Part shown: positions 4,814 through 63,816 of the stretch, one piece after another | Layout: the number at the start of each line of letters is the position of its first letter | Numbering within the stretch: position 1 is the first letter of the stretch | Source: Bugulina stolonifera | Lineage: Eukaryota; Bryozoa; Gymnolaemata; Cheilostomatida; Bugulidae | Assembly (NCBI GenBank): GCA_935421135.1 | Contig: OW285197.1 | Location: 1,925,068-1,989,067 of the forward strand | Direction: 5' to 3' | DNA length: 64,000 nt | The notes under the pieces: generated by a model | What the model was told of the DNA's origin: nothing | Databases searched by the model: none | The model's input: the letters and a program-made list of their open reading frames with translations, nothing else | Translations under genes and position numbers: made by a program

Positions 4814-5800
4814 ATGCCGAAGACTAGGAAAAGCAAGAATATGGTGGATACAGAGACCACCGAATCGACACTGTTACTTGAAGAATTGAAAAAAGTTCGC
4901 CAGGACATGACCACGATACAGTTGGAACAAAAAAATCTCAGGAAAATAGTAAATGACACAGTTAATGAAAACCATAATACTCCAAATTCTACTCTTAACA
5001 CAAATATGAATGCCAACGTGAGTTCTACAAGTCCAGCTCATGAAGTAGAATACGTAGATCCGGTATTTCAACCATCCGCCACTTCAGCTCCAACTTACAA
5101 ATATAAGGCATCTATCTGTCCGTTACCCTCTTTTCATGGCAGTGATGGTCTGAAGAAGTTCCTTAGTAACTTCAGGGACGTATGTAGACTAAATGGTTGG
5201 CATCTACAAAATGAACAAGGACTATGGTTGAAAATGTGCTTACAAGGTAAAGCAAGGGATGTATTATACGATGATACCAACGATCCTGGTGTTATTAGCA
5301 ATAGGCTACAGGCTCGATTCGGCGAACAGTTATTAAAGAAACGATATGAACTTGCTCTACCCAGAAGGAAACGAAAACCTGAGACACTGGCAGATTTAGC
5401 CAGTGACATTAGAAACATGGTAAACATTGTTTATGAAGAGCTAGATTTTGATACAAGGGAAAAGATGGCAGTAAAACATTTCATAATGGCTCTGGAATCC
5501 CCAATAACACAATACGAATTATTATTGAGGACAGAACTAACTCTAGAAGGAGTTTTAGACGCTGCCCAGCTCCGAGAAGTATATTTCGGAAAAGAAACTC
5601 CCTGGGACAACCCCTCCCAGCGCTCTGTTCAAACTGAGAGGAAAATGCCCCCACTAACTATGACAGACCGATCAGAAAACAGAAATTCTAGAAATTGTAA
5701 ACATTGTGGGGGAAATCATCCAGCCTACATCTGTCAACCTTGCCGCCATTGTAAAGGAGCACATTATGACCACAAATGTCCTAGTTTACAGGGAAACTAG
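4814..5800 (+). CDS. gag: Gypsy gag polyprotein
   Basis: The 328-residue ORF has a coiled, charged N-terminus (about residues 10-50) and a retrotransposon capsid-like helical region from about 100 to 250. At its C-terminus are two zinc knuckles of the form C-x2-C-x3-H-x4-C (CKHCGGNHPAYIC and CRHCKGAHYDHKC). It would form the nucleocapsid shell that packages element RNA. ATG 4814 is the first in-frame start after the leader. The ORF stops at TAG, and pol begins 114 bases downstream in the -1 frame. Expression of pol could therefore use frameshifting or reinitiation; neither is proven here. Confidence 0.85.
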   Translation: MPKTRKSKNMVDTETTESTLLLEELKKVRQDMTTIQLEQKNLRKIVNDTVNENHNTPNSTLNTNMNANVSSTSPAHEVEYVDPVFQPSATSAPTYKYKASICPLPSFHGSDGLKKFLSNFRDVCRLNGWHLQNEQGLWLKMCLQGKARDVLYDDTNDPGVISNRLQARFGEQLLKKRYELALPRRKRKPETLADLASDIRNMVNIVYEELDFDTREKMAVKHFIMALESPITQYELLLRTELTLEGVLDAAQLREVYFGKETPWDNPSQRSVQTERKMPPLTMTDRSENRNSRNCKHCGGNHPAYICQPCRHCKGAHYDHKCPSLQGN

Positions 5801-5913
5801 CAACCCCAACCAAACCGCCCACCTGGAAGGGGACCAATAATACTCGGGCCACCAACATAACATCTATTTACGAACAACAAAAGCTACAAACTTTACAAGA
5901 GATAAAACAATAT

Positions 5914-8550
5914 ATGAATCCTACCAGTCCCAAAGAAAATACTGAATACAAAGATGACAAATCCCCCTACTTAGAAGTAGAAATCAATAATCACAAGTGT
6001 GTTTTCCTCCTAGATACCGGTGCCACTCACACAATCATGTCTCGTCAATATGCTGAACAAATCGGTATATTGAATCTTACAGGATACACACCAGATACTA
6101 TCTGGGAAGGAAAGGCAGTAAACGGTGAACCTATTATCTGCTATGGATCAATTCAAACCATTATCAAGCTAGGAAATAAACAGGAAACTTGCAACATCAT
6201 CATATCTGACATCACTGATGTCGGAATATTTGGAATGGATTCTATAACTAAATTTGGTTGCAAGATAGATTTCACAGAGATGATCTTACAGGTACAAGAC
6301 AAAAGTTTACCCATGTTGAGTAAAACCGGTTACAGACTAAAAACCCGCTGTGTTATTAGCAGGAAAATAACCATACCTCCGATGAGAGAGACTTTGATTC
6401 CAGTAGAAAAACAACATCATACGGATGATCCAGTAGGCATGATCGAACCTGTCCATGATCATCCGTTATATAAAGAAGGACTACTAGTATCTAGGTGTTT
6501 GGTAAACAATAAAGCTCTCATAGCACGAGTAGCCAACACCTCTAAACACCCCATAACTCTCCAGGAACAACAGATTATCTGCAATTTTATATCAAATTCG
6601 GTCTTACAAATAGAAAGTCCTACCAATATAGATTTACAACACACAACGTCGGAAGAAACGTTGCCAGAACACTTACACTGTTTACTGGATAGCATACCCA
6701 AATCAGTAACACAGAATACTCAAAGTCAAGTAAAGAAGTTACTTCACTCCTACCAAGATATATTCTCTACAGGTCCAACTGATATGGGTCGAACAAATAT
6801 ACTGGAACATGAAATAAAGTTACAACCAGGAAGTAAACCAATCAAAATTCCTCCCTATCGGAGTGGATTTCACAATAACCAGGAAATTGAAAAACATATC
6901 CAAGATCTTATCGAACCAACCACCAGCCCATATAGCTCACCAGTGATTTTAGTAGCAAAAAAAGACGGCACCACCAGGTTTGTAATAGATTACCGACAAC
7001 TAAATAAACATACGGTTATTGATGCTTACCGTCTCCCAAGAATAGACGACAGCTTAGAAGCTCTTGGTGGAGCACGAATCTTCTCCACGTTTGACTTGCT
7101 CAGTGGATTTTGGCAGGTACCTCTGTCACAGGATGCAAAAGACAAAGCAGCATTTTGCACCAGGTCTGGATTGTATACATGGAAATGTATGCCTCTGGGA
7201 CTGGCCGGTAGTCCCGCCACTTTTGAGAGACTAATGGAACTAGTCATGCAGGGCCTACAATGGCAAATCATGCTCATATACCTAGATGATATTATATGCT
7301 TTTCTACAACTGAACAAGAACATATAGAACGACTACAACTCATATTTGAACGATTGAGAAAAGCAAATCTGAAAATCAAAGTTAGTAAATCTAAGATCTT
7401 TCAGGAAGAGGTAAAATATCTTGGACACATAATCTCACCTCAAGGGATTAAAACTGACCCTGATAAAATACTTGCAGTTAAAAATCTCCCAACACCTACC
7501 AACAAAAAGGAACTTCGCTCAGTTTTGAGACTAACAGGATACTACCGCCGTTTTATACCTGAATATGCAAATATAACCAGACCACTAGTCTCACTAACCA
7601 AGAAGAAAACAAATTTCAAATGGAACTCTGGCCATGAACTGGCTTTCAATCAGTTAAAAAATGTTATGACCAGTCCATCAACCTTGGCCTACCCAGATTT
7701 TCAGAAACAATTTATCCTCGACACAGATTGTTCAGGAATAGCCATGGGGGCAGTCTTATCTCAGAAAGATACCGAAGGATATGAACGCCCCATAGGATAC
7801 TTTAGTAAAGCCCTTAATCCGGCCCAACAAAGATATGCCATCACTAAACAGGAAATGTGTGGAATGGTAGAAGCCATACGACACTTCAAACCTTACCTCA
7901 TAGGTTCAAAATTTTTATGCCGGGTAGACCACCACTCTCTGTTATGGCTAACCAATCTGAAGAATCCTACTGGGATAATCGCTCGATGGCTTCAAACTTT
8001 GGCTGAGTTCCAGTTCGAAGTAATACATAGACCTGGAAAAATACATCTAAATGCTGATGCACTATCACGGTTACCATATACTACCACTTCTATAGAAGAT
8101 GAACACTCATATCAGGATTCATTAAAAAAGCAAGTTGAACAAAGTATCAAAATTAGAGGTCTACAAGTACAATCTATCAGCATTCAAACTACAGATATCA
8201 GCCAAGCCCAACATTCTGATCCCGAACTTATACCCATCATACATATAATAAAAGGAAATTCCACACCTACCCATAACGAAATCAAACAATTTCCACGTGC
8301 TACCAGATTCTACATCGGAAAACTATCCAGTTTAATACTGAAGAATGAAGTACTTACCGAAAAAAATGGTGACACCTGCAGAATTATTATACCATCCAAA
8401 CTTCAAAGTACAATAATCAAAAGTTTCCATGATGATGACCATGCTGGAAAAGATCCAACTTTAGCCAAAATATCTCAGTACTATCTATGGTATGCTATGG
8501 CTACAAAAATAAACACATGTACATACATGTGTAATTTGTCAACCGAATAA
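5914..8550 (+). CDS. pol: Gypsy pol: protease, reverse transcriptase, RNase H, start of integrase
   Basis: The 878-residue ORF starts with an aspartic protease (FLLDTGATHTIMS, Asp34). The reverse transcriptase carries FVIDYRQLN and catalytic YLDD at residues 456-459 (codons at 7279-7290). It ends in a connection/RNase H domain with FILDTDCSG and the terminal NADALSRL motif. It then enters the integrase zinc finger, where the His pair is visible (FHDDDHAGK). The frame changes before the two cysteines: a CxxC is read in another frame at 8527-8538. The ORF therefore stops at 8550 and integrase continues in the next ORF. I read this as one broken polyprotein rather than two genes. Confidence 0.9.
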   Translation: MNPTSPKENTEYKDDKSPYLEVEINNHKCVFLLDTGATHTIMSRQYAEQIGILNLTGYTPDTIWEGKAVNGEPIICYGSIQTIIKLGNKQETCNIIISDITDVGIFGMDSITKFGCKIDFTEMILQVQDKSLPMLSKTGYRLKTRCVISRKITIPPMRETLIPVEKQHHTDDPVGMIEPVHDHPLYKEGLLVSRCLVNNKALIARVANTSKHPITLQEQQIICNFISNSVLQIESPTNIDLQHTTSEETLPEHLHCLLDSIPKSVTQNTQSQVKKLLHSYQDIFSTGPTDMGRTNILEHEIKLQPGSKPIKIPPYRSGFHNNQEIEKHIQDLIEPTTSPYSSPVILVAKKDGTTRFVIDYRQLNKHTVIDAYRLPRIDDSLEALGGARIFSTFDLLSGFWQVPLSQDAKDKAAFCTRSGLYTWKCMPLGLAGSPATFERLMELVMQGLQWQIMLIYLDDIICFSTTEQEHIERLQLIFERLRKANLKIKVSKSKIFQEEVKYLGHIISPQGIKTDPDKILAVKNLPTPTNKKELRSVLRLTGYYRRFIPEYANITRPLVSLTKKKTNFKWNSGHELAFNQLKNVMTSPSTLAYPDFQKQFILDTDCSGIAMGAVLSQKDTEGYERPIGYFSKALNPAQQRYAITKQEMCGMVEAIRHFKPYLIGSKFLCRVDHHSLLWLTNLKNPTGIIARWLQTLAEFQFEVIHRPGKIHLNADALSRLPYTTTSIEDEHSYQDSLKKQVEQSIKIRGLQVQSISIQTTDISQAQHSDPELIPIIHIIKGNSTPTHNEIKQFPRATRFYIGKLSSLILKNEVLTEKNGDTCRIIIPSKLQSTIIKSFHDDDHAGKDPTLAKISQYYLWYAMATKINTCTYMCNLSTE

Positions 8551-8584
8551 ACTAACATCAGTCAGCAAAACATCCAAGAAAACC

Positions 8585-9574
8585 TTGAAGGTTGGTACCA
8601 TCATGGACCAAGTATCTATTGACCTTGTAGGACCATTTCCACAGACCACTAAAGAAAACACCATCATATTGGTAGCAATAGATCATTTTTCTAAATGGGC
8701 AGAAGCATATGCCTTACCTCACGCCACTGCTGAACTTTGTGCTCAAGCTCTCTATGATGGCTTCTTTAGCAGATTCGGGTTTCCACTTACATTACACTCA
8801 GATCGTGGCACAGCTTTCACATCTAACATCTTCAAAGAATTATGCCAGTTAGGCCACACTAAGAAGACCTTTTCTGCACCATATCATCCCACTGGAAACT
8901 CTGTATGTGAAAGAGTCATTGGAACACTGGTAAACATGATCAGAACAAAAGTACATGATACAAACTTTGAATGGGATGAGATCCTGGAAACAGTTATGAT
9001 GGCCTATAGGGCTACACCACACACCAGCACCCGACTATCTCCCAATCAAATAATGGTAGGGAGGAATATACGTCTCCCATACGTTATGTGCCCACAGACT
9101 GATCCTGTTCCAGTAGAACAGTATATTAAAGATCTCAATAACAAACTACAAGCAATATATAATCAAGCTAATATAGAACGAGAACCAGCAAGTTTTGATC
9201 CTCTAATCCACAAACCTTATAGAGAAGGAGATCTAGTATGGGTATTGAGAGCCAAAAGTAAAACTAACAAACCCGGAAAGTTAGAGCCACGGTACATCGG
9301 CCCATACAGCATCAAGGAAGTCCTCGACTATGACACATATATTATCAATGAAAATCTAGACGATGATAGTTCTAAAGACAGAATAGAACATCATGTCAGA
9401 TTGAAAAAATATCGGTCTGATCAATTTCACTTATATTTGTATGCTGCTCTAGTGGTCAAAAATATGTTCATATTACATGCATATTGGAATGGTTTTAAAA
9501 TGGTGGGAAGAATTAGAATACGAATGAAGTTGCAAAGAGCGCTTCAGATTGGATTATCTAAAGAAGGCCTATAA
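8585..9574 (+). pseudogene. pol: Gypsy integrase segment, separated from pol by a frame change; C-terminus replaced by MITE
   Basis: This ORF continues pol in the +1 frame. The integrase core shows the catalytic triad D13 (SIDLVGPF), D73 (LHSDRGTAF) and E109 (SVCERVIGT), with the normal 35-residue D-E spacing. A C-terminal GPY-like module follows (KLEPRYIGPYSI). Residues after about 300 are translated from the palindromic MITE at 9484-9870 and are not native. The nominal ATG is not a true start. The core looks intact, but the element as a whole is inactive because of the upstream frame change and the missing 3' LTR. Confidence 0.85.
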
Positions 9575-16600: not shown

Positions 16601-19600
16601 TAAAACAATCCCCTATTTTAGCGCTTGCAGACGGTAGTTGTGTATTTGTCTACTTGATACTATTATATGAGCTTGTGGGTATACATGAGTATAACTAGCC
16701 AAGGGTTGTGTATCCATGTACATGATTCTGTGTGTTTATTCAACTGTATAGTACACGTACAACAGGTACCAACATACTATATAAACTACTAACTACTACT
16801 ACTGCTAGTAACCACAAATAATACTAGCTACTACATGTACATACTATCACCCCACCAGGCACCTACACAATGAGACCATGATGGCTGTGGCACAACGTCA
16901 ATGGGTAAACATATACGATAATGAGGGCATCGAGTTACATTGTCTGAAAGTACTTGACTCACCTCTACAGCTACAGTTCCTACGACATCACTTCCTGCTG
17001 GCGTGCTCCGTAAGTCCATCATAGACTATATTAGTTAGTGTCGACTCTATGTCCACTCCAGCTGGCACCCGTTTTTGTTCTCTGTTAGATGACCATCAAG
17101 TGAAAAAGGGGAATAATGCTATGTTCCTCATGTTTATGGTAAACTGAAGGTCTGACTATGTCACAAATTCAGTCAATATTATACTATCATTGTTTTATTG
17201 GTGCAGGGTTTTATATGTATATGTATATTTTAATGGTCATGCATTTTATTTCATATCTTTTTATCATTGTACTCTAATATTTTACTAGTGGTGTTTTATG
17301 GGACAGTAATATTACATGCATGTGTAGTGTCTATGTATACAGTAGTAGAGTAGGCTGCTACTATAATGTATTAGTGATCATATGTTTATGAATCAGAGGT
17401 GTAAACAACCTATAATTAGTAATGTCCCAAATTCTTATCCCAAGCAATTTATGTGACTAAATTTTTCTAAGCCATGATTTTATGCATGACTTATTTTTGA
17501 AGTGTCAGGTACTCTGAGGTATAAAAGCAGAGACCCAAGTTTTACAATTACAGTACAGTGACAGTTCAGTTAGAAGTTCAGTTCAGTGTAGTTTTAGTAA
17601 GTCCAGTAATAAACCATCTTATCAATCCAGTATTCATGACTGATTTTTAAAGAATCTGAAATCACAAGTAGGGAAATTGTGACAATTGGTGCCATGACCA
17701 GGATCAGTCACTGAGGATAAGCAGAAGAATATTGGATTGCTACAAGTTACTGAACAGTGGTGGTGAGAGAGCGATTTGGCTACTTCACCGTGTAAGTAAC
17801 TCTAGTGTTAGTGAGTTACAAGTGGAAACAAGTGTTGTCTGAGGAGACATTTGGACAGTTTGGTGAGACAGCAGTTGGCGACTTCACCGTGGTAGTGACT
17901 CTAGTGTCAAAGTGTGTAACAGTGTCAAGTATAATCTGAGGATATACTTAAAGTCAACATGGATATTGAGAAATTAGTGGCTCTTGCTAAACAGATGGGA
18001 TATGATGGAGAAAGTCTACAACAGTTTGTAAGAGAGCAGCAGACAGCTGAAAGAGAGGAGCGACAACGTGAAAGAGAGGCTAAACTTGCATTAGCAGAGA
18101 GAGAATCTAGGTTAGCATTGGCGGAGAAGGAGGCTGAGGAAAGGCAACACAGAGCAGAAGCTGAAGAAAGGAGAATGACTCATGAACTTGATATGAAGAA
18201 GTTAGAACTAGAACACAAATCAGGTGAGTCAAGGGCTAATGTCAGTGGTATGAGTACAATGGGTAAAAGTCCAAAATTGCCAGTTTTTGTCGATGGTAAA
18301 GACGAGTTAGATAGTTACTTGCAGAGGTTTGAGAGGTTTGCTAAGAATAATAGTTGGAATGTCAGTGTATGGGCCACTTATTTGTGTACATTGTTGACTG
18401 GTCGTGCGTTAGAGGTGTATTCCCGTTTGTCAGACGAGGATGCAGTTGATTATAAGTCATTGAAATTGGCTTTGTTGGAGCGGTATGACCTCACAGAGGA
18501 GGGTTACCGTAGAATATTCAGGCGTGAGAGACCTGAAGGTGTCGAGAGCTCTAAGCAGTTCTTAGTTAGACTAGAGAATTTTTATTCCAAGTGGGTGACT
18601 GCAGCAGGTGCTGAGTCTTTGGAGCGTGTGGCTCAGTTGTTAGTTCGTGAACAGTTTTTCCAGACCTGTCCAAAGGATCTGGCTGTGCATTTGAAGGAGC
18701 AAAATGCTAAGAGTCTAGATGAGTTGGCGGAAATGGCGGATAGATTTTTGGCCGCACATGGTAGAAGGCTGTCTGACAGTTCTAAACAGACTGTTGAGAG
18801 GAAGAGTTTTGAGCCATCTAGTGGTCAGCAGTTTAGTGGTGTGCAATGTCATAACTGTGGTAGTTATGGGCATAAGGCTAGTGATTGTAAGGTTCCAAGG
18901 CGCAAGTGTCTGAAGTGTGAGAAGTTTGGGCACATTGCCAAGTTTTGTCCCAATGTGAGGCAAGACAGTTTGAAGGTCAAGAAACCTGTTGGTGCATATG
19001 GAAAGGATGCTGAGCAGGTTGCTGTGTACCGGAGGGAAGATTTAGATGATGAGAATCTACCCTTGGTTGATGGTTTTGTGGGCGATACTAAAGTGAAAGT
19101 ATTGCGAGATACCGGTTGTACAGCTATTGTAGTTCATGAGAGTTTGGTGAAGCCTGAGCAGTTTTTAGGCACTCATGCAACTTTTACTATGATGAATGGA
19201 ACTAAGCAGGAAGTTCAACGGGTGAAGATTGTTGTTGATACACCTTATATTTCTGGCCAGGTCAAGGCTTATAGTATGAAGGATTGTATTTATGACTTGA
19301 TTGTTGGAAATGTTGATGGCTCGCATTTCGCTGCTGTTGATGGTGTAAAGGAGATTGGTGGCGTAACAACACGAGCTCAAGCTCAAGAAAGCAAAAGGAC
19401 GCCATCTTCATTGAAGGTCAAAGAGATAACTGACCTTAATGTTGATAGGGAGGATGTGGTTAAGATGCAGCAAGGTGATCAGAGTTTGCAATCTATTTGG
19501 AAGAAGGTTGAGACGGGTGTTAAAGGTGATAAGGAATGGTTTGAGGTCAAGCGACAGATTCTGTACAGGTTCTTTGCTAATGAGAATGGTGAACATTGTA

Positions 19601-22600
19601 AGCAGCTGGTGGTGCCAGCAGAGCTGAGAAAAAGAGTAATGGAACAAGCTCATTGTTCTATTCTCGGAGGTCATCTTGGGGTCGCCAAAACAAAGAGGCG
19701 TATTTTGGCATGTTTTTATTGGCCGGGGTTGCATGATGATGTAAGTCGGTTTTGTCAGTCGTGCGACATTTGTCAGAAGACAATTAGTAAAGGGAGTGTG
19801 CAGAAGGCTCCTCTTCAGAAGATGCCATTAATGGATGTACCATTCAAGCGTGTGGCAGTAGATCTGATTGGACCTATAGCCCCACCAAGTGAACAGGGTC
19901 ACCGTTTCATTCTTACGTTGGTTGATTATGCTACGAGGTACCCTGAAGCAGTGCCTTTGAAGGACATCAGTACCGAGACCGTGGCAGAGGCCCTAGTTGA
20001 TTTCTTTAGCAGGTTAGGTGTTCCTGAGGAGATTTTGAGTGATATGGGTACACAGTTTGTGTCTCAGTGCATGAAGGAGGTTGGACGCCTTAGTATAAAG
20101 CAGTTGGTTACGACTCCATACCATCCAATGTGCAATGGGCTGGTAGAAAAGTTTAACGGTACACTGAAGCAAATGTTGAAAAGGTTATGTAGTGAGCAGC
20201 CAAAGCAGTGGCACAGGTATATCAATGCTCTCTTGTTTGCTTATCGTGAGGTGCCGCAGGAGTCTAGTGGATTTTCCCCTTTTGAGTTACTCTATGGTCG
20301 TACAGTCCGTGGTCCCATGCATATTTTGAGGAAGTTGTGGACTACAGAGGAGAATGACGCAGAGGTCATTAATACATATCAGTATGTGTTTGAGCTTCGT
20401 GAAAAGTTGGAAGATACTTTGCAGTTGGCCAGGGATAATCTTGAGAAGTCCCAGAAGAGGTACAAGTTTTACTATGACCGAAAGGCCAAGAGGAAACCTT
20501 TGAACTCTGGTGATGAGGTATTGGTCTTGTTGCCCACTGACAGCAATAAGTTATTGATGCAGTGGAAGGGTCCTTTCAAGATAGTTGAGGTAGTTGGTCT
20601 AAATGATTATGCAGTGATGATAAATGGTCGTCGACGCATTTATCATTCAAATCTGTTGAAGAAGTACTTCACCGAAGGTGAAAGCAAACCCAGTGGAGTG
20701 TTAGACAAGGTGGGTTGTGCGGTGATAGATAGTGTTGAAGAGGATATTATGGATGATGACATTCCAGAGATAGGTTGTTTTGTGCCCAAAGAATCTTTTG
20801 AAGATGTCCGGTTCGGGGCAGATCTTAATGTGGATCAGTTGTCAGCATTGAAGGCTGTAGTGAAAGAACATGCCAGTGTTTTTACTGATAGGCCAGGGAG
20901 TACTGATCTTATTCAACACAAGATCAATTTGACAAGCTCCACCCCGATTCGTTCCCATCCATATGTTGTTCCATTTTCGATCAGAGAATCCTTGAGCAAG
21001 AACATTGAGGAGATGTTACAAATGGGGGTAATAAGACGCTCTACCTCAAGTTATGCTAGTCCAGTTGTGGTTGTGAAGAAGCCTGATGGGTCAGATCGTG
21101 TATGCATTGACTACAGGAAGTTGAACAAGATTACGTTGTTTGATCCTGAGCCAATGACTTCAATTTCCGAGTTGTTCCATAGGTTATCTGGTGCTAAGTA
21201 CTTCACCAAGATTGACCTCAGCAAGGGTTATTGGCAAATCCCTGTGGCCCCGGAAGATGTTGAGAAGACTGCTTTTGTCACTCCTGATGGCTCATATGAG
21301 TTCTTGAAGATGCCCTTTGGTATGATGAACTCTGGTGCTACTTTGGTTAGAGCTATGAGGAAGTTGATTGGTGGAATGGTTGGTGTCGAGAATTATGTTG
21401 ATGATATTTTGGTGTATACTTCCACGTGGGAAGAGCATCTTAAGGTCCTGTCTGAGCTGTTGGGTCGCATGGCTAAAGCAAGATTGACAGCTCGACCTTC
21501 GAAGTGTTTTTTGGGATCGACACACGTAGAGTTTGTTGGTCATGTGTTAGGGAGTGGGTCAATGAGTCCTATGGATTCAAATGTGGAGAAAGTAAAGAAT
21601 GCACCTAGGCCTAAGACGAAGAAAGAAGTTAGGTCATTCTTGGGCTTGACTGGTTTTTATAGGGAATACATTCCTGAGTATGCTGCTATAGCTGTTCCAT
21701 TGACAGATTTGACACGTAAGGGACAGCCTAATAAGGTTGAGTGGTCAGTTGCGGCAGAGAATGCGTATCGGGTGTTGAAGGAGAAGATTGTGTCAAAGCC
21801 AATCTTAAAGTTACCTGATCAGACGAAGCCGTTTGTTTTAAGGACAGATGCTTCTGATTGTGGGATTGGTGCTGTTTTGTTGCAAGAAACAGAGGGAAAG
21901 TTGTTCCCAGTTAGCTATGCCAGCAAAAAGTTGAATGGTGCTGAGTTGCACTACAGTACCATAGAGAAAGAGTGTTTAGCGTTAGTGTGGGCAATTAAGA
22001 AATACCAACCATATCTATATGGGACCCGCTTTGTACTCGAAACTGATCATGAACCTTTGACTTATCTGAAACAGGCCCGATTTATAAATAATCGTGTAAT
22101 GAGATGGGCCATGTTTTTGCAGGAACATTCTTTTAGAATAGAATCAATTAAAGGAAGTGATATCTTGGTGCTGACTTCCTGAGCAGAGCTGTATGTGATT
22201 AGAATTTGTGTGCTGTAAAGAAAATTCTATGGAATTTCCTCTTAAGAAGGGGGTGATGTCACAAATTCAGTCAATATTATACTATCATTGTTTTATTGGT
22301 GCAGGGTTTTATATGTATATGTATATTTTAATGGTCATGCATTTTATTTCATATCTTTTTATCATTGTACTCTAATATTTTACTAGTGGTGTTTTATGGG
22401 ACAGTAATATTACATGCATGTGTAGTGTCTATGTATACAGTAGTAGAGTAGGCTGCTACTATAATGTATTAGTGATCATATGTTTATGAATCAGAGGTGT
22501 AAACAACCTATAATTAGTAATGTCCCAAATTCTTATCCCAAGCAATTTATGTGACTAAATTTTTCTAAGCCATGATTTTATGCATGACTTATTTTTGAAG

Positions 22601-58252: not shown

Positions 58253-58711
58253 TTAGTGAAGTACCCATCTATTATACATAATAATATGAATAGAGAGTAA
58301 AGGTTTAGCATCATTGTCAACACCTGTTGTCTGCTGAGTAATACTGCCCAGTAACAAAACCCAAACCCCAAACCCCACACCTCCGAGTAAACTTGCCAAT
58401 GGCTTCAAAAGAAGACCTAAAAATCCGCCACGTTGTAGGATTAACTTTTTCTGCCTCACACTAGTACGAGAGTTGGTGAGATCCTCAATGGCCCTTCTAT
58501 GTCGACGTAGAGAGTTCAACTGAGCGGTAGTCAGATGAACATTACCTAATAATTCATTTCTAGCACACTCAACAAGAGCGAGTATAAGGTCTTTGTTAGC
58601 CTCAGCAATGGTTGAATCTCTGATGGTTGCAGATGCTTTTGTCAGTGCATATATACTCAAGGCATTCCTCCTCAACCTTGGAGAATACTTAGGTGAATTA
58701 ATATATCTCAT
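58253..58711 (-). CDS. pX-like small capsid-associated protein of a Polinton/adintovirus-type element
   Basis: The frame stays open upstream to 58744 but without ATG. The first ATG is at 58711, giving 152 residues. A helical N-terminal half precedes SLRRHRRAIEDLTNSR, then a basic-to-hydrophobic switch RQKKLILQRGGFLGLLLKPL and a glycine-rich hydrophobic segment (LLGGVGFGVWVLLLG). A short basic region leading into QxGGFLxxLLxPLxxLLGG is characteristic of the pX-like proteins of Maverick/Polinton and adintovirus elements, thought to be virion-associated. It starts 65 bases after the ATPase gene, on the same strand. The family call rests on this C-terminal pattern. Confidence 0.65.
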   Translation of the reverse strand: MRYINSPKYSPRLRRNALSIYALTKASATIRDSTIAEANKDLILALVECARNELLGNVHLTTAQLNSLRRHRRAIEDLTNSRTSVRQKKLILQRGGFLGLLLKPLASLLGGVGFGVWVLLLGSITQQTTGVDNDAKPLLSIHIIMYNRWVLH

Positions 58712-58776
58712 GCTTGATGATGGATGTGCCCTCTCCGAGTCCAAGACAGTTCATGGAGAGAGTAGAGATGTGAATG

Positions 58777-59436
58777 CTACTTATATTCCAGGGTATTCGG
58801 AATATATACAGTCATGGGAGAGTGCTCAGAAGCAAAATTACCGATCAGTCTAGCCCACTCCGGGGTTTCCTGGCGAAGATTCAAGAATAGAAAAGAGTGT
58901 GGCTTACGTGTAGCATCACTAAAAGCTTCTTGGACAGCTCTTGTACTCTGAGGAAAAGCCTGCTTTGCAAGGTTGGTAACAGACATTCCGTCTCTGGGGT
59001 TCTTGAACAAGAAAAAGTACTGCGAGTTTATTGACACTGTTCTATTATCTTTCGGGAAAAGGTTCTGTAGTAAGAAAAAGACGCTTATGTTCAGGTGGTG
59101 ACTGAACTTTGTAAAGATTGCATTAGTAGTCTCTTTCCCCCCGACTTCACCCATCAAGTCATCAATGATGAGCCAGCGATTCTTCCCATCATGCTCTATA
59201 TCCATCTCTACATCAATGAGTCCTGAATGAAACCTTACTTTATCCTTGTAATCCTCAAAGCGGCGTTGCCAAACTCCATAGCAGTAAATGATTTCAACAG
59301 GAGTGGGTGAAGCAATTTCATCAACTTTCTTAATAAGACTAAATAGTAGTTCCGTTTTTCCACTCCCTGTTGGACCACAGACTAGAGCTGTGAAGGGACT
59401 CTGCAAGCGAAGATCGATTTCTTGGTGTGGACGCAT
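58777..59436 (-). CDS. A32-like (FtsK/HerA) DNA-packaging ATPase
   Basis: 219 residues with a true ATG. Walker A GPTGSGKT is at 21-28 and Walker B WLIIDD at 88-93. A downstream LLQNLFPKDNRTVSINSQYF block ends with FKNPRD (about 122-149). The Q-N-L-F motif after Walker B and the FKNPRD block are typical of the packaging ATPases of Polinton/Maverick elements and adintoviruses, which pump genome DNA into capsids. The length matches that family. The gene overlaps the upstream membrane-protein ORF by 98 bases in another frame, a virus-like arrangement. It has no frameshift or stop, unlike most transposon genes in this window. Confidence 0.85.
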   Translation of the reverse strand: MRPHQEIDLRLQSPFTALVCGPTGSGKTELLFSLIKKVDEIASPTPVEIIYCYGVWQRRFEDYKDKVRFHSGLIDVEMDIEHDGKNRWLIIDDLMGEVGGKETTNAIFTKFSHHLNISVFFLLQNLFPKDNRTVSINSQYFFLFKNPRDGMSVTNLAKQAFPQSTRAVQEAFSDATRKPHSFLFLNLRQETPEWARLIGNFASEHSPMTVYIPNTLEYK

Positions 59437-59746
59437 GCTGATCCAGTTGAGTAGCTAATAGAGTTGTGTTTGTTTTTAAAAAGTGTCCTTGCTTAAGTAC
59501 TCCTTTGTCTTTGCCATTGGGTGGTTCCCTATCACTTAGATATGTGTAAACTGATGGGGATAAAGATGAGCAAGAAAGTATAAATAGTATTATGATTATG
59601 TAGAATGTGAACTTCTTTCTTTTGTTGCTTCTCTCTCCTATTTGCTCCCTTCCCTCTTCAGCATAGATAGCTACTACTTCATCTAAGAGACCATCAGCCA
59701 CATCTTCATAATTCTCATTTCTACATACTACCTCTTGCTTTGACAT
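59339..59746 (-). CDS. Small single-pass membrane protein in the virus-like block
   Basis: 135 residues from a true ATG. The acidic N-terminal part (about 1-40) is followed by a basic RSNKRKK, one strong membrane segment FTFYIIIILFILSCSSL (about 47-63), and a polar C-terminus with N-x-S/T sites. The basic residues before the membrane segment predict the N-terminus inside. It starts 41 bases after the upstream 431-codon ORF and overlaps the ATPase gene. No family is recognised. A virion or envelope role is only suggested by its neighbours. Confidence 0.6.
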   Translation of the reverse strand: MSKQEVVCRNENYEDVADGLLDEVVAIYAEEGREQIGERSNKRKKFTFYIIIILFILSCSSLSPSVYTYLSDREPPNGKDKGVLKQGHFLKTNTTLLATQLDQHASTPRNRSSLAESLHSSSLWSNREWKNGTTI

Positions 59747-59786
59747 CTTGCCCTTGTTTGAGAGAACAACTGGAATCTATACACTT

Positions 59787-61082
59787 TTATTCATCATTAC
59801 TTTCTCCTGTTGGAACCCACTGTGGTAGTTTAGTATCTTCCCCTTCTGCTTTTGCATCATCATCATCTAGTTTGTTAGCCAGGTGGGGAATTATGTGATC
59901 AATAATTGATACACTATCCATTTTTTCTTCTTCTTCTTCTTCTTTTTCCATTCTTTCCTCTGTTAACTTTTTTTCTAAGAAGGCAATGCGATTTGCTCTT
60001 CTCTCTTTTCTTGCACCAATTCTCTGTTGCATCTCTAGTGCTTCTTTCCACCCCAGTGCTCCCGCCAATTCCACTTTCTTTAGTGCCAATTCTTGTTCTA
60101 TCTTTCTAATCTCTTGTTCCCTTTTGTCACACATTTCAGCCTCTTCTTTAGTTTCTACATGAGTTTGCTCTTCTATCATAATCTGGTTATTCTCTCCTGT
60201 AGAAGTCTCTCTCACTTCCACTCTAGCTACTCCTGGTGAAGGGCTTCTTATCTCCTCTAACCTGTTTTTGGATGAATCTAGTTCTCCAATGTCACACATT
60301 TCAGCCTCTTCTATCATAACCTGGTTAGTCTCTCCTGTAGAAGTCTCTCTCACCTCTAATCTAACATCTCCTGGTGAAGGGCTTCTTATCACCTCTAACC
60401 CATTTTTGGATGGATCTAGTTCTCCAAACAATCGCCCTGCATATAGCGTATTACCTCTACTAAGAATTAAACCAGGGATGCTTTCTTCATTGTAACTCCT
60501 CTTCGCTCGCGATTTCTCCTTCCCATCCTCAAAGCGACATCTTCTTGCCCCATCCTTTAATATGTTCAATACTCTATGATAGAGTTCATTCTTTGACCCT
60601 TCCCCACCAGGTTCATTATCCAGATATAGTAAGAAGTGAGTGTTAAAAGTGGCCTCCGCTCCCACACCAGTTTCATCCCAGTTTCTATCTTCAATAATCT
60701 TCTCAACCTCCACTCTACACCAGGTTGACAACTCCGCATTCCTAAGAAGGAGTAAGGGAGAAGAAACGGATGCGTTTTTTGTTTCTACCATAGATGAAAA
60801 TCTTGACCTAGCTCCTGTTAAGTCTTCATAACAAAGTGCCATTTTCCTCAACTTTTCCTCTCCTATCTTAAAAGGGATATTCATAGAGAGTGAAAGTGTT
60901 CTAAAATAGATGGCAAGCTCTACCACTAAGGAATTATGAGCAAGTCTGTCAACCCAATACCACATCCATGGACTATTCGTCTCTTCGATATTACTTTTGA
61001 TCATATAATCCCATACAGACTTCGGGAGGACTTCCTTTAAAAGTACATATCTCCCCGCTGCTCCTTTGGTGAGAAAAGACAC
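59787..61082 (-). CDS. Uncharacterised 431-codon protein of the virus-like block
   Basis: The open frame runs 431 codons but starts at GTG, with a stop shortly upstream. The first ATG is codon 27 (61004). Because codons 2-26 look protein-like (YVLLKEVLPKSVWDY), a short upstream exon or a frame change near the start is possible. Residues about 1-200 look folded and Trp/Leu-rich (SPWMWYWVDRLAHNSL). Residues 240-310 hold an imperfect duplication around SPSPG...VRETSTGE. The C-terminal third is a highly charged coiled coil with an EEEEEE run, and the tail is LPQWVPTG. TATAAAAG lies upstream on the same strand at 61143-61136. I recognise no family. The position is compatible with a structural protein, but nothing proves it. 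Confidence 0.6.
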   Translation of the reverse strand: MSFLTKGAAGRYVLLKEVLPKSVWDYMIKSNIEETNSPWMWYWVDRLAHNSLVVELAIYFRTLSLSMNIPFKIGEEKLRKMALCYEDLTGARSRFSSMVETKNASVSSPLLLLRNAELSTWCRVEVEKIIEDRNWDETGVGAEATFNTHFLLYLDNEPGGEGSKNELYHRVLNILKDGARRCRFEDGKEKSRAKRSYNEESIPGLILSRGNTLYAGRLFGELDPSKNGLEVIRSPSPGDVRLEVRETSTGETNQVMIEEAEMCDIGELDSSKNRLEEIRSPSPGVARVEVRETSTGENNQIMIEEQTHVETKEEAEMCDKREQEIRKIEQELALKKVELAGALGWKEALEMQQRIGARKERRANRIAFLEKKLTEERMEKEEEEEEKMDSVSIIDHIIPHLANKLDDDDAKAEGEDTKLPQWVPTGESNDE

Positions 61083-61129
61083 GTTTGCTATGACTAAGTC
61101 TTCTTTGTATTAATACTATCATCAGACAA

Positions 61130-61145
61130 ACTTATCTTTTATAGT
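61130..61145 (-). promoter_or_regulatory. TATA box upstream of the virus-like block
   Basis: On the minus strand GACTATAAAAGATAAG contains a consensus TATAAAAG about 55 bases before the 431-codon frame. This would place transcription start near 61110. Confidence 0.5.
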
Positions 61146-61597
61146 CCCACCCCAGTGGAACTCGGGATGGGCGGCGGGCCGCTGCCTAGTCGCTTGGCCC
61201 GGTGGATACGGGGCACTGGCGTCGCCTCCACGTGTACGGTCGGCGCCGCACGCAACGTAGGCGGACGCGGCTTGACCGCCTCAAACGATCGGTCGTTCGG
61301 GTGAGTGGGGGTTGCGGGGGAGGGTGGGCGGCGGTGGAGGAGGGGTGGCGGTGATGACGGTGATGACGGTGATGGCGGCGGTGATGGCAGCGGCGGTGGT
61401 GGTGGCGGTGGTGGTGGTGGCGGCGGCGGTGGTGGTGGAGGCGGTGGTGAGGGTGGTGGTGGTGGAGGCGGTGGTGAGGGTGGTGGTGGCGGTGGTGCGG
61501 ACGGGACGAGGGCGGGGGAGGAGTGGGGGAGGGAAGGAGGGAGGGAAGGGGTCGTGACCGGGTTTGGGGTCAAGTGTGCAAATGTTTTTTCGACCAA
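61139..61597 (-). CDS. Proline-rich ORF at the head of the virus-like block (doubtful gene)
   Basis: 152 codons from ATG 61597. The middle is almost pure Pro with Ser, encoded by a CCACC-type low-complexity tract. The flanks are more complex (MVEKTFAHLTPNPVTT; TVHVEATPVPRIHRAKRLGS). It lies just upstream of, and on the same strand as, the virus-like genes, and CCAAT boxes lie just beyond its start. It overlaps the TATA box of the next ORF. The strand-specific low-complexity tract also opens other frames, so this may be noise. Confidence 0.3.
   Translation of the reverse strand: MVEKTFAHLTPNPVTTPSLPPSLPHSSPALVPSAPPPPPPSPPPPPPPPSPPPPPPPPPPPPPPPPPPPLPSPPPSPSSPSSPPPLLHRRPPSPATPTHPNDRSFEAVKPRPPTLRAAPTVHVEATPVPRIHRAKRLGSGPPPIPSSTGVGL
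61300..61560 (+). repeat. G-rich low-complexity tract (GGTGG/GGCGG)
   Basis: Imperfect GGTGGTGGTGGCGG repeats, GC-rich against an AT-rich background. The GTGGAGGCGGTGGTGAGGGT block is tandemly duplicated around 61434-61490. It has G-quadruplex potential on the plus strand. Confidence 0.85.
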
Positions 61598-61705
61598 TCA
61601 GAAGGGGGGATTTTGGGGTGACCTTGGCAAGGTCGCGTGCAGAACTTTTGTGCTCTTCTGTGATTGGTTGAAATCGGAAATACCGGCTTGTGATTGGTTG
61701 AAAAC
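61590..61705 (-). promoter_or_regulatory. CCAAT-box cluster
   Basis: Three CCAATCA sites occur within about 100 bases: CCAATCA on the plus strand at 61594, and ATTGGTTG (CCAATCAC on the minus strand) at about 61663 and 61692. The last two share a longer TGTGATTGGTTGAAA unit. The cluster sits where a promoter for the minus-strand block would be. Confidence 0.45.
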
Positions 61706-61759
61706 AGGGGTCAATGAGTGCGTGTATAGAAGTGCACTGACTGTACTACTACTATAATA

Positions 61760-63816
61760 TAAGACAATCAGTTTAGCCTATATTTTTTCGGTGGTCAGAC
61801 TCGTTCTATATCTGTTTCTAAAAATCGCAGTTTAATTTATCCAAATGTATCACAGCGTAAAAATGTCAACTGTTTTAGTATTTGCTACTTTGATAGAAAT
61901 ACTACTACTACTACACCTAATATCTTATTATTTGAGCAGTAATTTTACACCATAAGCGTCCCAAAATTGCATATCCAGGTAGTGCCTTTCCAATCTTTTT
62001 TCGTTGGAGGGCGCTGCGCCCCTCCGGCACCCGCTCCGTGCTCGAGCCCGCATGAACATCCAACTTATATATAAAAATACTTTGTTCAGAGTTAGTGTGT
62101 AGGCCTACCTACAAAATTTTAAGTTTATTAAATGTTATTAGTATTTTATCCATTAAAATACGTGCTACTTATTTTTAAAATTGTTCTTGCATTTTATCTA
62201 TTAAACAAACAAATTTATTGAGTTTAGATGTTTATTAATACAACAAATTCTTACTTTTTAAACGGTCGAGAGAGATAACTCACATTATACTACTTAATAA
62301 AAACTAAGAAACTTTTTCTGCAATTTTTGCTGTGGTATTTCTGAGTTGAAATAACACAATGTTAAAACCTTCATTTGATTTTAACTTACATGTAGCTATA
62401 CAAATTCTCCAGTTTTATATGAAAACCTTTGTTTATTATGTAAACCTTAAATCGTAAAAACCTTTCTGTTTCAATAAAAATTTCTTTATATTATAGTTAG
62501 GAAGAAGATTTTATTAGAGAGTGATATTTTTTGCGAGTTTGCAACACGCAAAGTTCGCTAAAGTTATTTCGTGCGGTCGTCCTTGGACGACTACCGACCC
62601 AAAACTGAAGTGCCTATGAGTGGTGCTAGGCCTTCTCATTACATGAAATATCGAGCGGTGTCAGTAGCCCAATAACTACCAGAGACGACCCATCTGGTCC
62701 TGAGTCTGACCTTCAGACTATACGTTGAAAGAGAGTGATCCGACCTAGTAGGCGGCTCGCTACGCGAATGACCTGACAAAAGGAAGTGAAAGTCTCTGTA
62801 TCAAGTATAGATGTGTCTTTATTGAAAGCCAAGTGAAGACTGAGACAATGAACGGTGAAACAATGCCCTTTATATAGTATAAGGACTTCCGACCGACGTA
62901 GTGTCGGGAAAAGACGACATAGGGTCGTCCGGAAGTTGTGCAACAACATGGCGACCGGAAGCCCGACGCCCGACCCAAAATAAGTCGGGTTATACAAAAG
63001 TTGCTTATAATCATGTAATTCATGTACAAAATGAATATCAAGTGATTCCGAAAGGTCGGGCTTCTTTACATGGGTATAAAAGAAACTAATAGACTTAGTA
63101 ATTTTCATACATGAATGTACATCAGTATGTAGTTAAATAGAGTGAGTATAAACACATAGATACACGTATATAGACAGTAAATGAATGATTTAGACATGCA
63201 ATGCAGTTGAGTACAAGCATACAAACAGCTAGTTATGAGAGTACGCGTGTTAGTTGAGTAGTGCTGTGACAACTACTAGGCACTTAGGGTGCTGTAGGGT
63301 TTATTCCGATAGCTGGAGTCATATACGAATGTCCTGTACCATTACAATATTATGTAAATTGGTTGAAGACCATATTTATATACTCAATTCAATGCAATCT
63401 AATTAAACCAAATAATGCAAGTATATATTTATAAACATCTACTGCATTATTTGGTGTCGATTATTTTTTAGATAATATAAAAGAGGTGGACCTTTAAAAG
63501 TTAACCCAATCACACTAACTAAGATGCTTATAATATATGCATAGGCTGAATAACACATTGATACGTTTAATGCAGACAATTTCAGTTGGAGTTATGCCAT
63601 TGTCTATGTTCACCCTGGAAAATTTAGGGAGTAAATTATAGCAGTATTGAAGTAGTGGTGACCTATGTAATACGAAAATTTTCATCATTCAATTTAGACA
63701 GTCAGTGGTATTTTATGTCCCAACATGAGGAAGGTCTTAAATTTGTTGCTGTCTGTCTAGTCACGAAAGTTGATTGGTTACAGGGTTCCTGTCGCCTCTA
63801 TCGATCTCAGTGAATT
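61760..63816. other. Intergenic stretch between the virus-like block and urate oxidase
   Basis: A GC-rich hairpin, GGAGGGCGCTGCGCCCCTCC, lies at 62007-62026. At 62700-63275 the minus strand has an LTR-like layout (TGTCACAGC near 63271, TATATAAAGG near 62870, AATAAAGAC near 62820), but no target duplication or partner was found. ACCAAATAATGCA at 63408 and TGCATTATTTGGT at 63443 form a small inverted repeat. The urate oxidase promoter should lie at the right end. Confidence 0.45.

What the first reader, a model, noticed from the sequence alone, without database searches (positions are those of the whole stretch)
58253..61600. Virus-like gene block (packaging ATPase, pX-like, membrane protein, 431-codon protein) in animal DNA
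Four same-strand ORFs lie within 2.9 kb with gaps of tens of bases or overlap, and no obvious introns, in a genome where neighbouring genes are cut into exons of about 150 bp. Two have Polinton/adintovirus signatures: the A32-like ATPase with a QNLF motif and FKNPRD, and the pX-like GGFLxxLLxPL. No PolB, integrase, protease or recognisable major capsid gene is nearby. It may be a partial endogenous viral element, a reduced satellite-like element, or a host-retained cassette. The frames are mostly intact, unlike the decayed transposons around it.
Basis: partly seen in the sequence, partly recalled or inferred. Interest (0 to 1): 0.85.

Follow-up and report, generated by a model that had tools for sequence, protein, structure and literature searches.

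The report
Truncated copy of polymerase-less Maverick
The gene block is one end of a broken copy of a roughly 11-kb virus-like mobile element that exists in about 200 nearly identical copies in this animal genome and, unusually, carries packaging, integrase and probable capsid genes but no DNA polymerase of its own.

Summary
The four ORFs are real. They are one end of a longer element, cut off at window 58376 inside the pX-like gene; the terminus is at 61750. Other copies run about 11 kb between ~650-bp inverted repeats, with 6-bp target duplications (3 of 3 tested) and (AGT)2//(ACT)2 ends, as in Mavericks/Polintons. One copy, read in two separate pieces, carries a long helical ORF, membrane protein, A32-like ATPase, pX, integrase with chromodomain, three probable capsid-module genes and an adenain-like protease, but no PolB-sized ORF. 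Five of these genes occur 197-202 times each and the termini 720 times; decoys 0. So ~160 further terminus-bounded elements seem to lack these genes; their sequence was not seen. Ten protein-primed PolB loci exist; the four on C1 lie in none of 33 terminus pairs. Variants shared among 20 copies are mostly synonymous (73:20), private ones are not (58:92; p=1.4e-9). Best reading: a virion-forming Maverick satellite replicated in trans by another element's PolB (helper and virions inferred). The block is a relic; the family is a new variant of a known kind.

The parts
58376..61750 (-). Fragment (~3.4 kb, one end) of the PolB-less Maverick-like element; the end at 61750 is a true terminus, 58376 is a truncation point
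   Evidence: blastn of the window against 20 other copies: matches run 58376 to ~61750 in 16 copies, in split or shortened pieces in 4; other copies stay alike for >=7.7 kb; terminus AGTAGT..
61171..61750 (.). Left terminal inverted repeat (about 650 bp in the L046 copy, shorter here); holds a GGT/GGC-rich tract and CCAAT-like motifs (by eye)
   Evidence: window end inferred by mapping L046 coordinates onto the window; tandem repeats
61136..61143 (-). TATA-box-like motif ahead of the long ORF (by eye; no promoter test)
   Evidence: sequence
59787..61082 (-). 431-codon ORF (441 aa and ATG-initiated in L046); start codon here GTG; predicted mostly helical with a C-terminal coiled coil; no relatives found
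   Evidence: model with pLDDT 42, not usable as a fold
59339..59746 (-). 135-aa predicted single-span membrane protein, overlapping the ATPase ORF by 98 bases
   Evidence: fused forms in relatives
58777..59436 (-). 219-aa A32/FtsK-HerA-type genome-packaging ATPase
   Evidence: Pfam PF04665; model pLDDT 90.9; best PDB matches STIV B204 packaging ATPase; adenovirus IVa2, giant-virus A32-like and adintovirus ATPases among viral matches
58376..58744 (-). pX-like protein gene, 3' end missing; the ORF runs on to 58253 in flanking DNA
   Evidence: intact form in L046:5302-5700

Best explanation
The block is a truncated, ageing copy of a ~11-kb Maverick/Polinton-type endogenous virus that has lost (or never had) the protein-primed polymerase. 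Intact sister copies encode a packaging ATPase, pX, integrase with chromodomain, a probable minor capsid protein, core protein and major capsid protein, and an adenain-like protease, between inverted repeats with the (AGT)2//(ACT)2 ends that Maverick PolB uses. Proposed cycle: copies are transcribed, their linear DNA is replicated by a protein-primed PolB supplied in trans by one of about ten PolB-bearing loci in the same genome (or by a visiting virus), the DNA is packaged in virions built from the element's own proteins, and the element's integrase inserts it with a 6-bp duplication. Shown: anatomy, copy numbers, target duplications, intact frames, selection pattern. Inferred: identity of the capsid genes, helper PolB, virions, germline reinfection.
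For: Terminus at 61750 and truncation at 58376. Inverted repeats: the same 150 bases at both ends at 100%, a further 449 aligned bases at 99.8%. 6-bp duplications in 3 of 3 copies tested. Gene content of one copy from L046 and L054. 30-mers of five genes 197-202 hits each, termini 720, decoys 0. Fifteen of 19 gene-bearing terminus pairs on C1 are 10.0-11.1 kb; the 4 longer ones hold no PolB match. PolB (PF03175) found at 10 loci only (11 matches); none of 4 on C1 lies in any of 33 terminus pairs, and the C2 one has no listed terminus near it. Selection: variants shared among copies 73 synonymous: 20 nonsynonymous, private ones 58: 92, Fisher p=1.4e-9; integrase 14:1, MCP 17:2, virion genes alone p=2.2e-7. 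The same end motif and duplication length in vertebrate Mavericks, with jumping-back replication as its proposed role (PMC8097293, section 7 and passages). One palindromic derivative (C6:15041303-15049181) carries the capsid-gene 30-mer and the right arm in both orientations, as expected of a linear, strand-displacing replication intermediate.
Against: No virion, transcript or extrachromosomal form was tested. Whether any PolB locus has matching termini was not seen. MCP, minor capsid and core proteins have no significant family match (best for the MCP PF16903, E 0.16); the protease matches are weak (PF00770 E 0.097, below cut-off; PDB 6lj9 E 0.047). The 195-aa ORF shows no constraint (dN/dS about 1). 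Private variants are not fully neutral (0.45); the 20 copies came from the top of a list ranked by ATPase score, which favours intact copies. Bulk amplification by host repair or cut-and-paste is not excluded.
Confidence: 0.6

Rival explanations
1. Polymerase-independent transposon: the integrase moves the element by cut-and-paste (as recalled for Ginger/TDD elements) with host repair making the copies; the capsid genes are passengers.
For: Integrase is intact and constrained (14:1); no polymerase in the element.
Against: Virion genes are constrained as strongly as the integrase (49:9 shared vs 38:52 private); the end motif of protein-primed replication is kept in 720 termini; 6-bp duplications, while Ginger's are recalled as 4 bp.
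Confidence: 0.13
2. Passive deletion derivative: a PolB-bearing master with the same ends does or did all the work; the PolB-less form spreads like a defective interfering genome and its genes look constrained only because the master's are.
For: PolB loci exist; deletion and fold-back derivatives are frequent. In axolotl, tuatara and pike, high-copy Mavericks all have broken polymerase genes (PMC8097293 section 8).
Against: No PolB lies in the terminus pairs that could be checked (33 on C1). The ~200 gene-bearing copies seem to descend from one PolB-less form, and the shared variants that show constraint arose among them.
Confidence: 0.15
3. Two-component virus: the ~160 terminus-sharing elements without these genes are a second genome segment that supplies the missing functions, as bidnaviruses split their genome.
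For: 720 termini against ~200 gene-bearing copies; 14 of 33 terminus pairs on C1 show none of the five genes in the printed rows and several cluster at 9.51-9.57 kb; they share the right arm but not the left-arm 30-mer (194 hits).
Against: PF03175 does not match inside any of them on C1. Of the 14, four have the right arm at both ends (printed rows), which suggests fold-back, perhaps non-coding, derivatives. Their sequence was not read.
Confidence: 0.08
4. Domesticated host cassette kept for a host function.
For: Mostly open frames in the window copy.
Against: Lost start codon, truncated pX and junction ORF, ~200 interspersed sisters, more private changes (7.8 per kb) than the 0.16-4.71 per kb counted over the coding regions of other copies.
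Confidence: 0.01

Closest known systems
Vertebrate Mavericks/Polintons (Barreat and Katzourakis 2021, PMC8097293; sections 7-8 and passages seen)
   Same: Intronless ORFs; module order int - minor capsid - PW - MCP - protease matches the order here (last four by position and weak matches); ATPase module; long inverted repeats; 6-bp target duplications; (AGT)2//(ACT)2 ends; purifying selection on core genes.
   Different: No protein-primed PolB; a 441-aa helical protein with no detectable relatives stands at the end of the ATPase module; all genes on one strand; ~11 kb instead of 12.7-24.6 kb; ~200 copies with largely open frames instead of at most 38 intact copies in a genome. That survey demanded integrase plus pPOLB, so it would not list an element of this kind.
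Adintoviruses (PMC11071296, sections 14-16 seen)
   Same: rve integrase with C-terminal chromodomain, FtsK/A32-type ATPase, adenain-like protease, animal host.
   Different: Their defining OTU-bearing PolB is absent; a BLASTp-recognisable hexon was not tested.
Tlr1-type Polinton-like elements of Tetrahymena (PMC11071308, passages seen)
   Same: RVE integrase without a typical pPolB.
   Different: Tlr1 has a large helicase with a polymerase-like palm domain; none of the 10 proteins of this element scanned with Pfam shows a helicase or palm domain.
Bidnaviridae (PMC4061559, passages seen)
   Same: Only as an analogy: two linear DNAs with a Polinton-derived PolB and inverted repeats.
   Different: Bidnaviruses have parvovirus-type capsids and an ssDNA genome; no PolB was seen on either element type here.

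Membership tests
Maverick/Polinton | Long terminal inverted repeats | tested here: met
   Same 150 bases at both ends at 100% plus 449 aligned bases at 99.8%; ~650 bp in the L046 copy
Maverick/Polinton | 6-bp target site duplication | tested here: met
   3 of 3 copies: ATCTGC, GTCGTA, CACAAG
Maverick/Polinton | (AGT)2//(ACT)2 end motif | tested here: met
   Left ends of 20 fetched copies and the window, right ends of 3, 720 termini at <=1 mismatch
Maverick/Polinton | RVE integrase | tested here: met
   PF00665 E 2e-11 and PF00385 chromodomain E 1.2e-6
[quoted passage not shown]
   No such ORF in L046 or L054; PF03175 matches lie outside the 33 terminus pairs of C1
Maverick/Polinton | FtsK/A32-type packaging ATPase | tested here: met
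Maverick/Polinton | Adenain/Ulp1-type protease | tested here: inconclusive
   PF00770 E 0.097 below cut-off; PDB 6lj9 E 0.047; Q..C spacing of 7 by eye, adenain motif recalled
Maverick/Polinton | Double jelly-roll MCP and minor capsid protein | tested here: inconclusive
   Weak PF16903 match E 0.16, no PDB match of note, no NCBIfam or PHROG match of note; assigned by gene order; no structure could be predicted for these loci
Adintovirus | PolB with N-terminal OTU-like domain | tested here: not met
   No PolB in the element
Adintovirus | Hexon recognisable by BLASTp | not tested
   No adintovirus hexon at hand; the IMG/VR scan with the MCP found no relative
Tlr1-like Polinton-like virus | S1 helicase/palm replication protein | tested here: not met
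   No helicase domain in the proteins scanned
Ginger-type transposon | 4-bp target duplication (recalled), no capsid genes | tested here: not met
   6-bp duplications; packaging ATPase present

The most novel reading that the evidence does not exclude
A two-component endogenous virus in an animal genome: about 200 PolB-less Mavericks make the virions and integrate, about 160 terminus-sharing elements of mostly 8.5-9.6 kb are a second, co-packaged segment (carrying unrecognised replication functions or being satellites of the satellite), and a third set of about ten PolB loci supplies polymerase. A virus-like genome whose functions are spread over separate integrated elements with common ends would be new for Mavericks as far as I know.
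Probability: 0.1. Interest if true: 0.9.

Novelty: new variant of a known kind. Interest (0 to 1): 0.6.

Why it matters
Mavericks are defined as self-synthesising, so surveys look for integrase plus PolB (PMC8097293 methods passage). A family that dispenses with PolB, reaches about 200 copies with constrained packaging, integrase and probable capsid genes, and sits beside a few PolB-bearing loci gives a natural test of whether Maverick genes work in trans and whether virions are needed for genomic spread. The pattern of constrained shared variants and looser private ones argues that the virion genes are used between insertions. The unread terminus-sharing elements make a multipartite arrangement directly testable.

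Tried and rejected
IMG/VR scans with the ATPase, its alignment, the MCP and the integrase found no relative. The genome-contig scan gave 5 bacterial contigs matching short P-loop stretches, not relatives of note. Two searches with the 431-codon protein found nothing; its single-sequence model is unusable. PF00136 matches: I looked at the C6 locus only and judged it a host polymerase cut into exons; C1 and C7 were not examined. Rfam gave nothing on L054. PHROG and NCBIfam scans did not help with the capsid genes. Rejected: host cassette, contamination, ordinary complete Polinton. The distribution argument for gene-less elements rests on whole counts plus printed rows, which list only the first ~100 places (zero-mismatch rows first), so some of the 14 C1 pairs may hold diverged genes. 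The size of the family in the genome (about 3.6 Mb) is my estimate from counts and lengths. Literature: phrases such as 'lacks PolB' with polinton and integrase gave 0 papers with three of five terms; listings showed no title or abstract start on a PolB-less integrase-bearing animal Maverick. This is no proof of absence; the adintovirus description PMC8502044 is not held.

Full report
Observation. The ATPase passes Pfam's Pox_A32 cut-off, folds confidently (pLDDT 90.9) like the packaging ATPase B204 of an archaeal turreted virus (best six PDB matches) and, among viral models, like adenovirus IVa2, giant-virus A32-like and adintovirus packaging ATPases. It has 132 relatives in the metagenome protein set; I aligned 28 of them with it and read 15. 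Eleven of those 15 carry an N-terminal extension with a membrane-like stretch (by eye), which explains the overlapping 135-codon membrane ORF here as a neighbour that other lineages have fused to the ATPase.

The block is one end of a longer element. The host genome is held (235 Mb, 27 contigs). The ATPase search scored 150 of 263 candidates; the 150 rows are full length at 98-100% identity and 149 show no stop. I fetched 9.9 kb around 20 of these copies, chosen mostly from the top of that list. The window matches them from 58376 to about 61750 and no further on either side, while the others stay alike for at least 7.7 kb unless interrupted. At 61750 each copy starts with AGTAGT and each has a different flank (20 of 20 fetched copies). 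The window copy is therefore a fragment with one true end; the last ~40 codons of its pX-like ORF are junction sequence.

Anatomy of an intact copy. The copy at C6:19051495-19062701 (11,207 bp from repeat to repeat) was read in two separate pieces, L046 and L054. In order, all on one strand: long helical ORF (441 aa), membrane protein (135), ATPase (219), pX (132), an unconstrained ORF (195), integrase with chromodomain (356; PF00665 and PF00385), 248-aa and 141-aa proteins, a capsid-sized protein (418+ aa in L046, 434+ aa in L049), and a 175-aa protease-like protein. Then follow a 31-bp minisatellite and the right repeat. Integrase - minor capsid - PW - MCP - protease is the module order of vertebrate Mavericks (PMC8097293 section 7), so I assign the 248-, 141- and 434+-aa proteins by position. 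Family matches for them are weak or absent, and the protease matches are weak. No ORF of polymerase size is left over. Target duplications of 6 bp were seen in 3 of 3 copies tested. The (AGT)2//(ACT)2 ends and the 6-bp duplication are as in vertebrate Mavericks.

Numbers. 30-base patterns with up to 3 mismatches gave 199 (long ORF), 201 (ATPase), 197 (integrase), 201 (MCP) and 202 (protease) hits; a 24-base terminus pattern with up to 1 mismatch gave 720; read-backwards controls gave 0 each time. So about 360 elements have both ends and about 200 carry the genes. On C1, where all printed lists overlap, 19 of 33 terminus pairs hold the genes and 14 do not; 15 of the 19 are 10.0-11.1 kb; several of the 14 measure 9.51-9.57 kb. 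The right-arm pattern occurs 315 times and the left-arm one 194 times. Among printed rows, 4 of the 14 gene-less C1 pairs have the right arm at both ends, 7 at one end and 3 at none (read off by eye). One element, C6:15041303-15049181, has the MCP pattern and the right arm in both orientations, a fold-back form.

Polymerase. PF03175 matches 11 stretches at 10 loci, most with open frames of 1,006-1,415 aa (780 in one; one stretch with a TGA). The four on C1 lie in none of the 33 terminus pairs; the one on C2 has no listed terminus near it; the others could not be checked against termini. So PolB-bearing elements live in the same genome, but I have no sign that they share this family's ends, and equally no reading of their ends.

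Selection and age. Among 20 copies, variants seen in two or more copies are 73 synonymous and 20 nonsynonymous (dN/dS 0.08), variants seen once are 58 and 92 (0.45), without the 195-aa ORF, which is unconstrained either way (3:12 and 3:14). The contrast has Fisher p=1.4e-9, and p=2.2e-7 for the virion genes alone. Integrase 14:1, MCP 17:2, 141-aa 8:0, ATPase 5:1. The simplest reading is that virion genes are needed when the element passes from one insertion to the next, and drift afterwards. The long ORF is less constrained (10:10). Caveats: copies were drawn from the top of an ATPase-ranked list, sites are few per gene, and relatedness is not modelled. Private changes range from 0.16 to 4.71 per kb, so some insertions are very recent. 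The window fragment has 21 private changes in 2,692 bases (7.8 per kb) and is 1.15% from its nearest fetched copy; 17 other copies differ by 0.07-1.51%, median 0.70.

Mechanism. The end motif that lets a protein-primed polymerase jump back (PMC8097293 passage) is kept although the polymerase is gone. With constrained packaging and integrase genes and a few PolB loci in the genome, the economical account is a helper-dependent, virion-forming satellite. Cut-and-paste by the integrase alone, passive spread of a deletion derivative, and a two-component virus are the rivals. I put the first at 0.6; identity as a truncated copy of a PolB-less Maverick-type element is much firmer than the mechanism.

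Comparison and novelty. It fails one defining feature of Mavericks (PolB), so I call it Maverick-derived, not a Maverick proper. Known neighbours: high-copy vertebrate Mavericks with broken polymerases (axolotl 287, tuatara 280, pike 172) and Tlr1, which has an RVE integrase but another replication protein (PMC11071308 passage). Here no polymerase gene is left at all while the other genes stay mostly open and constrained.

Noticed in passing
window 17959-22182 (+): A single 1407-aa ORF of a Gypsy-type retroelement in which the integrase (residues 552-723) precedes the reverse transcriptase (1039-1196), the order recalled for Gmr1-like elements; it also has a SCAN-like gag match.
   Followed up: partly
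window 4814-9574 (+): A second Gypsy-type element: gag-like 328 aa, protease/RT/RNase H 878 aa, integrase 329 aa.
   Followed up: partly
window 62563-63350: An interspersed repeat that also lies beside 5 of the 20 fetched element copies, in L037 directly against the element's terminus; chance or a shared target preference is open.
   Followed up: partly
G000:C6:15041303-15049181: A palindromic copy carrying the capsid-gene pattern and the right arm in both orientations, like a snap-back product of linear DNA replication.
   Followed up: no
L046:5684-6271: A 195-aa ORF between pX and integrase with no sign of constraint (dN/dS about 1); the other two forward frames hold 8 and 26 stops.
   Followed up: partly
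L054:1121-2125: A 31-bp minisatellite between protease and right repeat that fills most of the non-coding arm.
   Followed up: no
G000, ten loci: Ten loci with protein-primed PolB matches in at least three score classes (about 95-101, 45-51 and 24-29 bits), so other Maverick-like families probably live in this genome.
   Followed up: no
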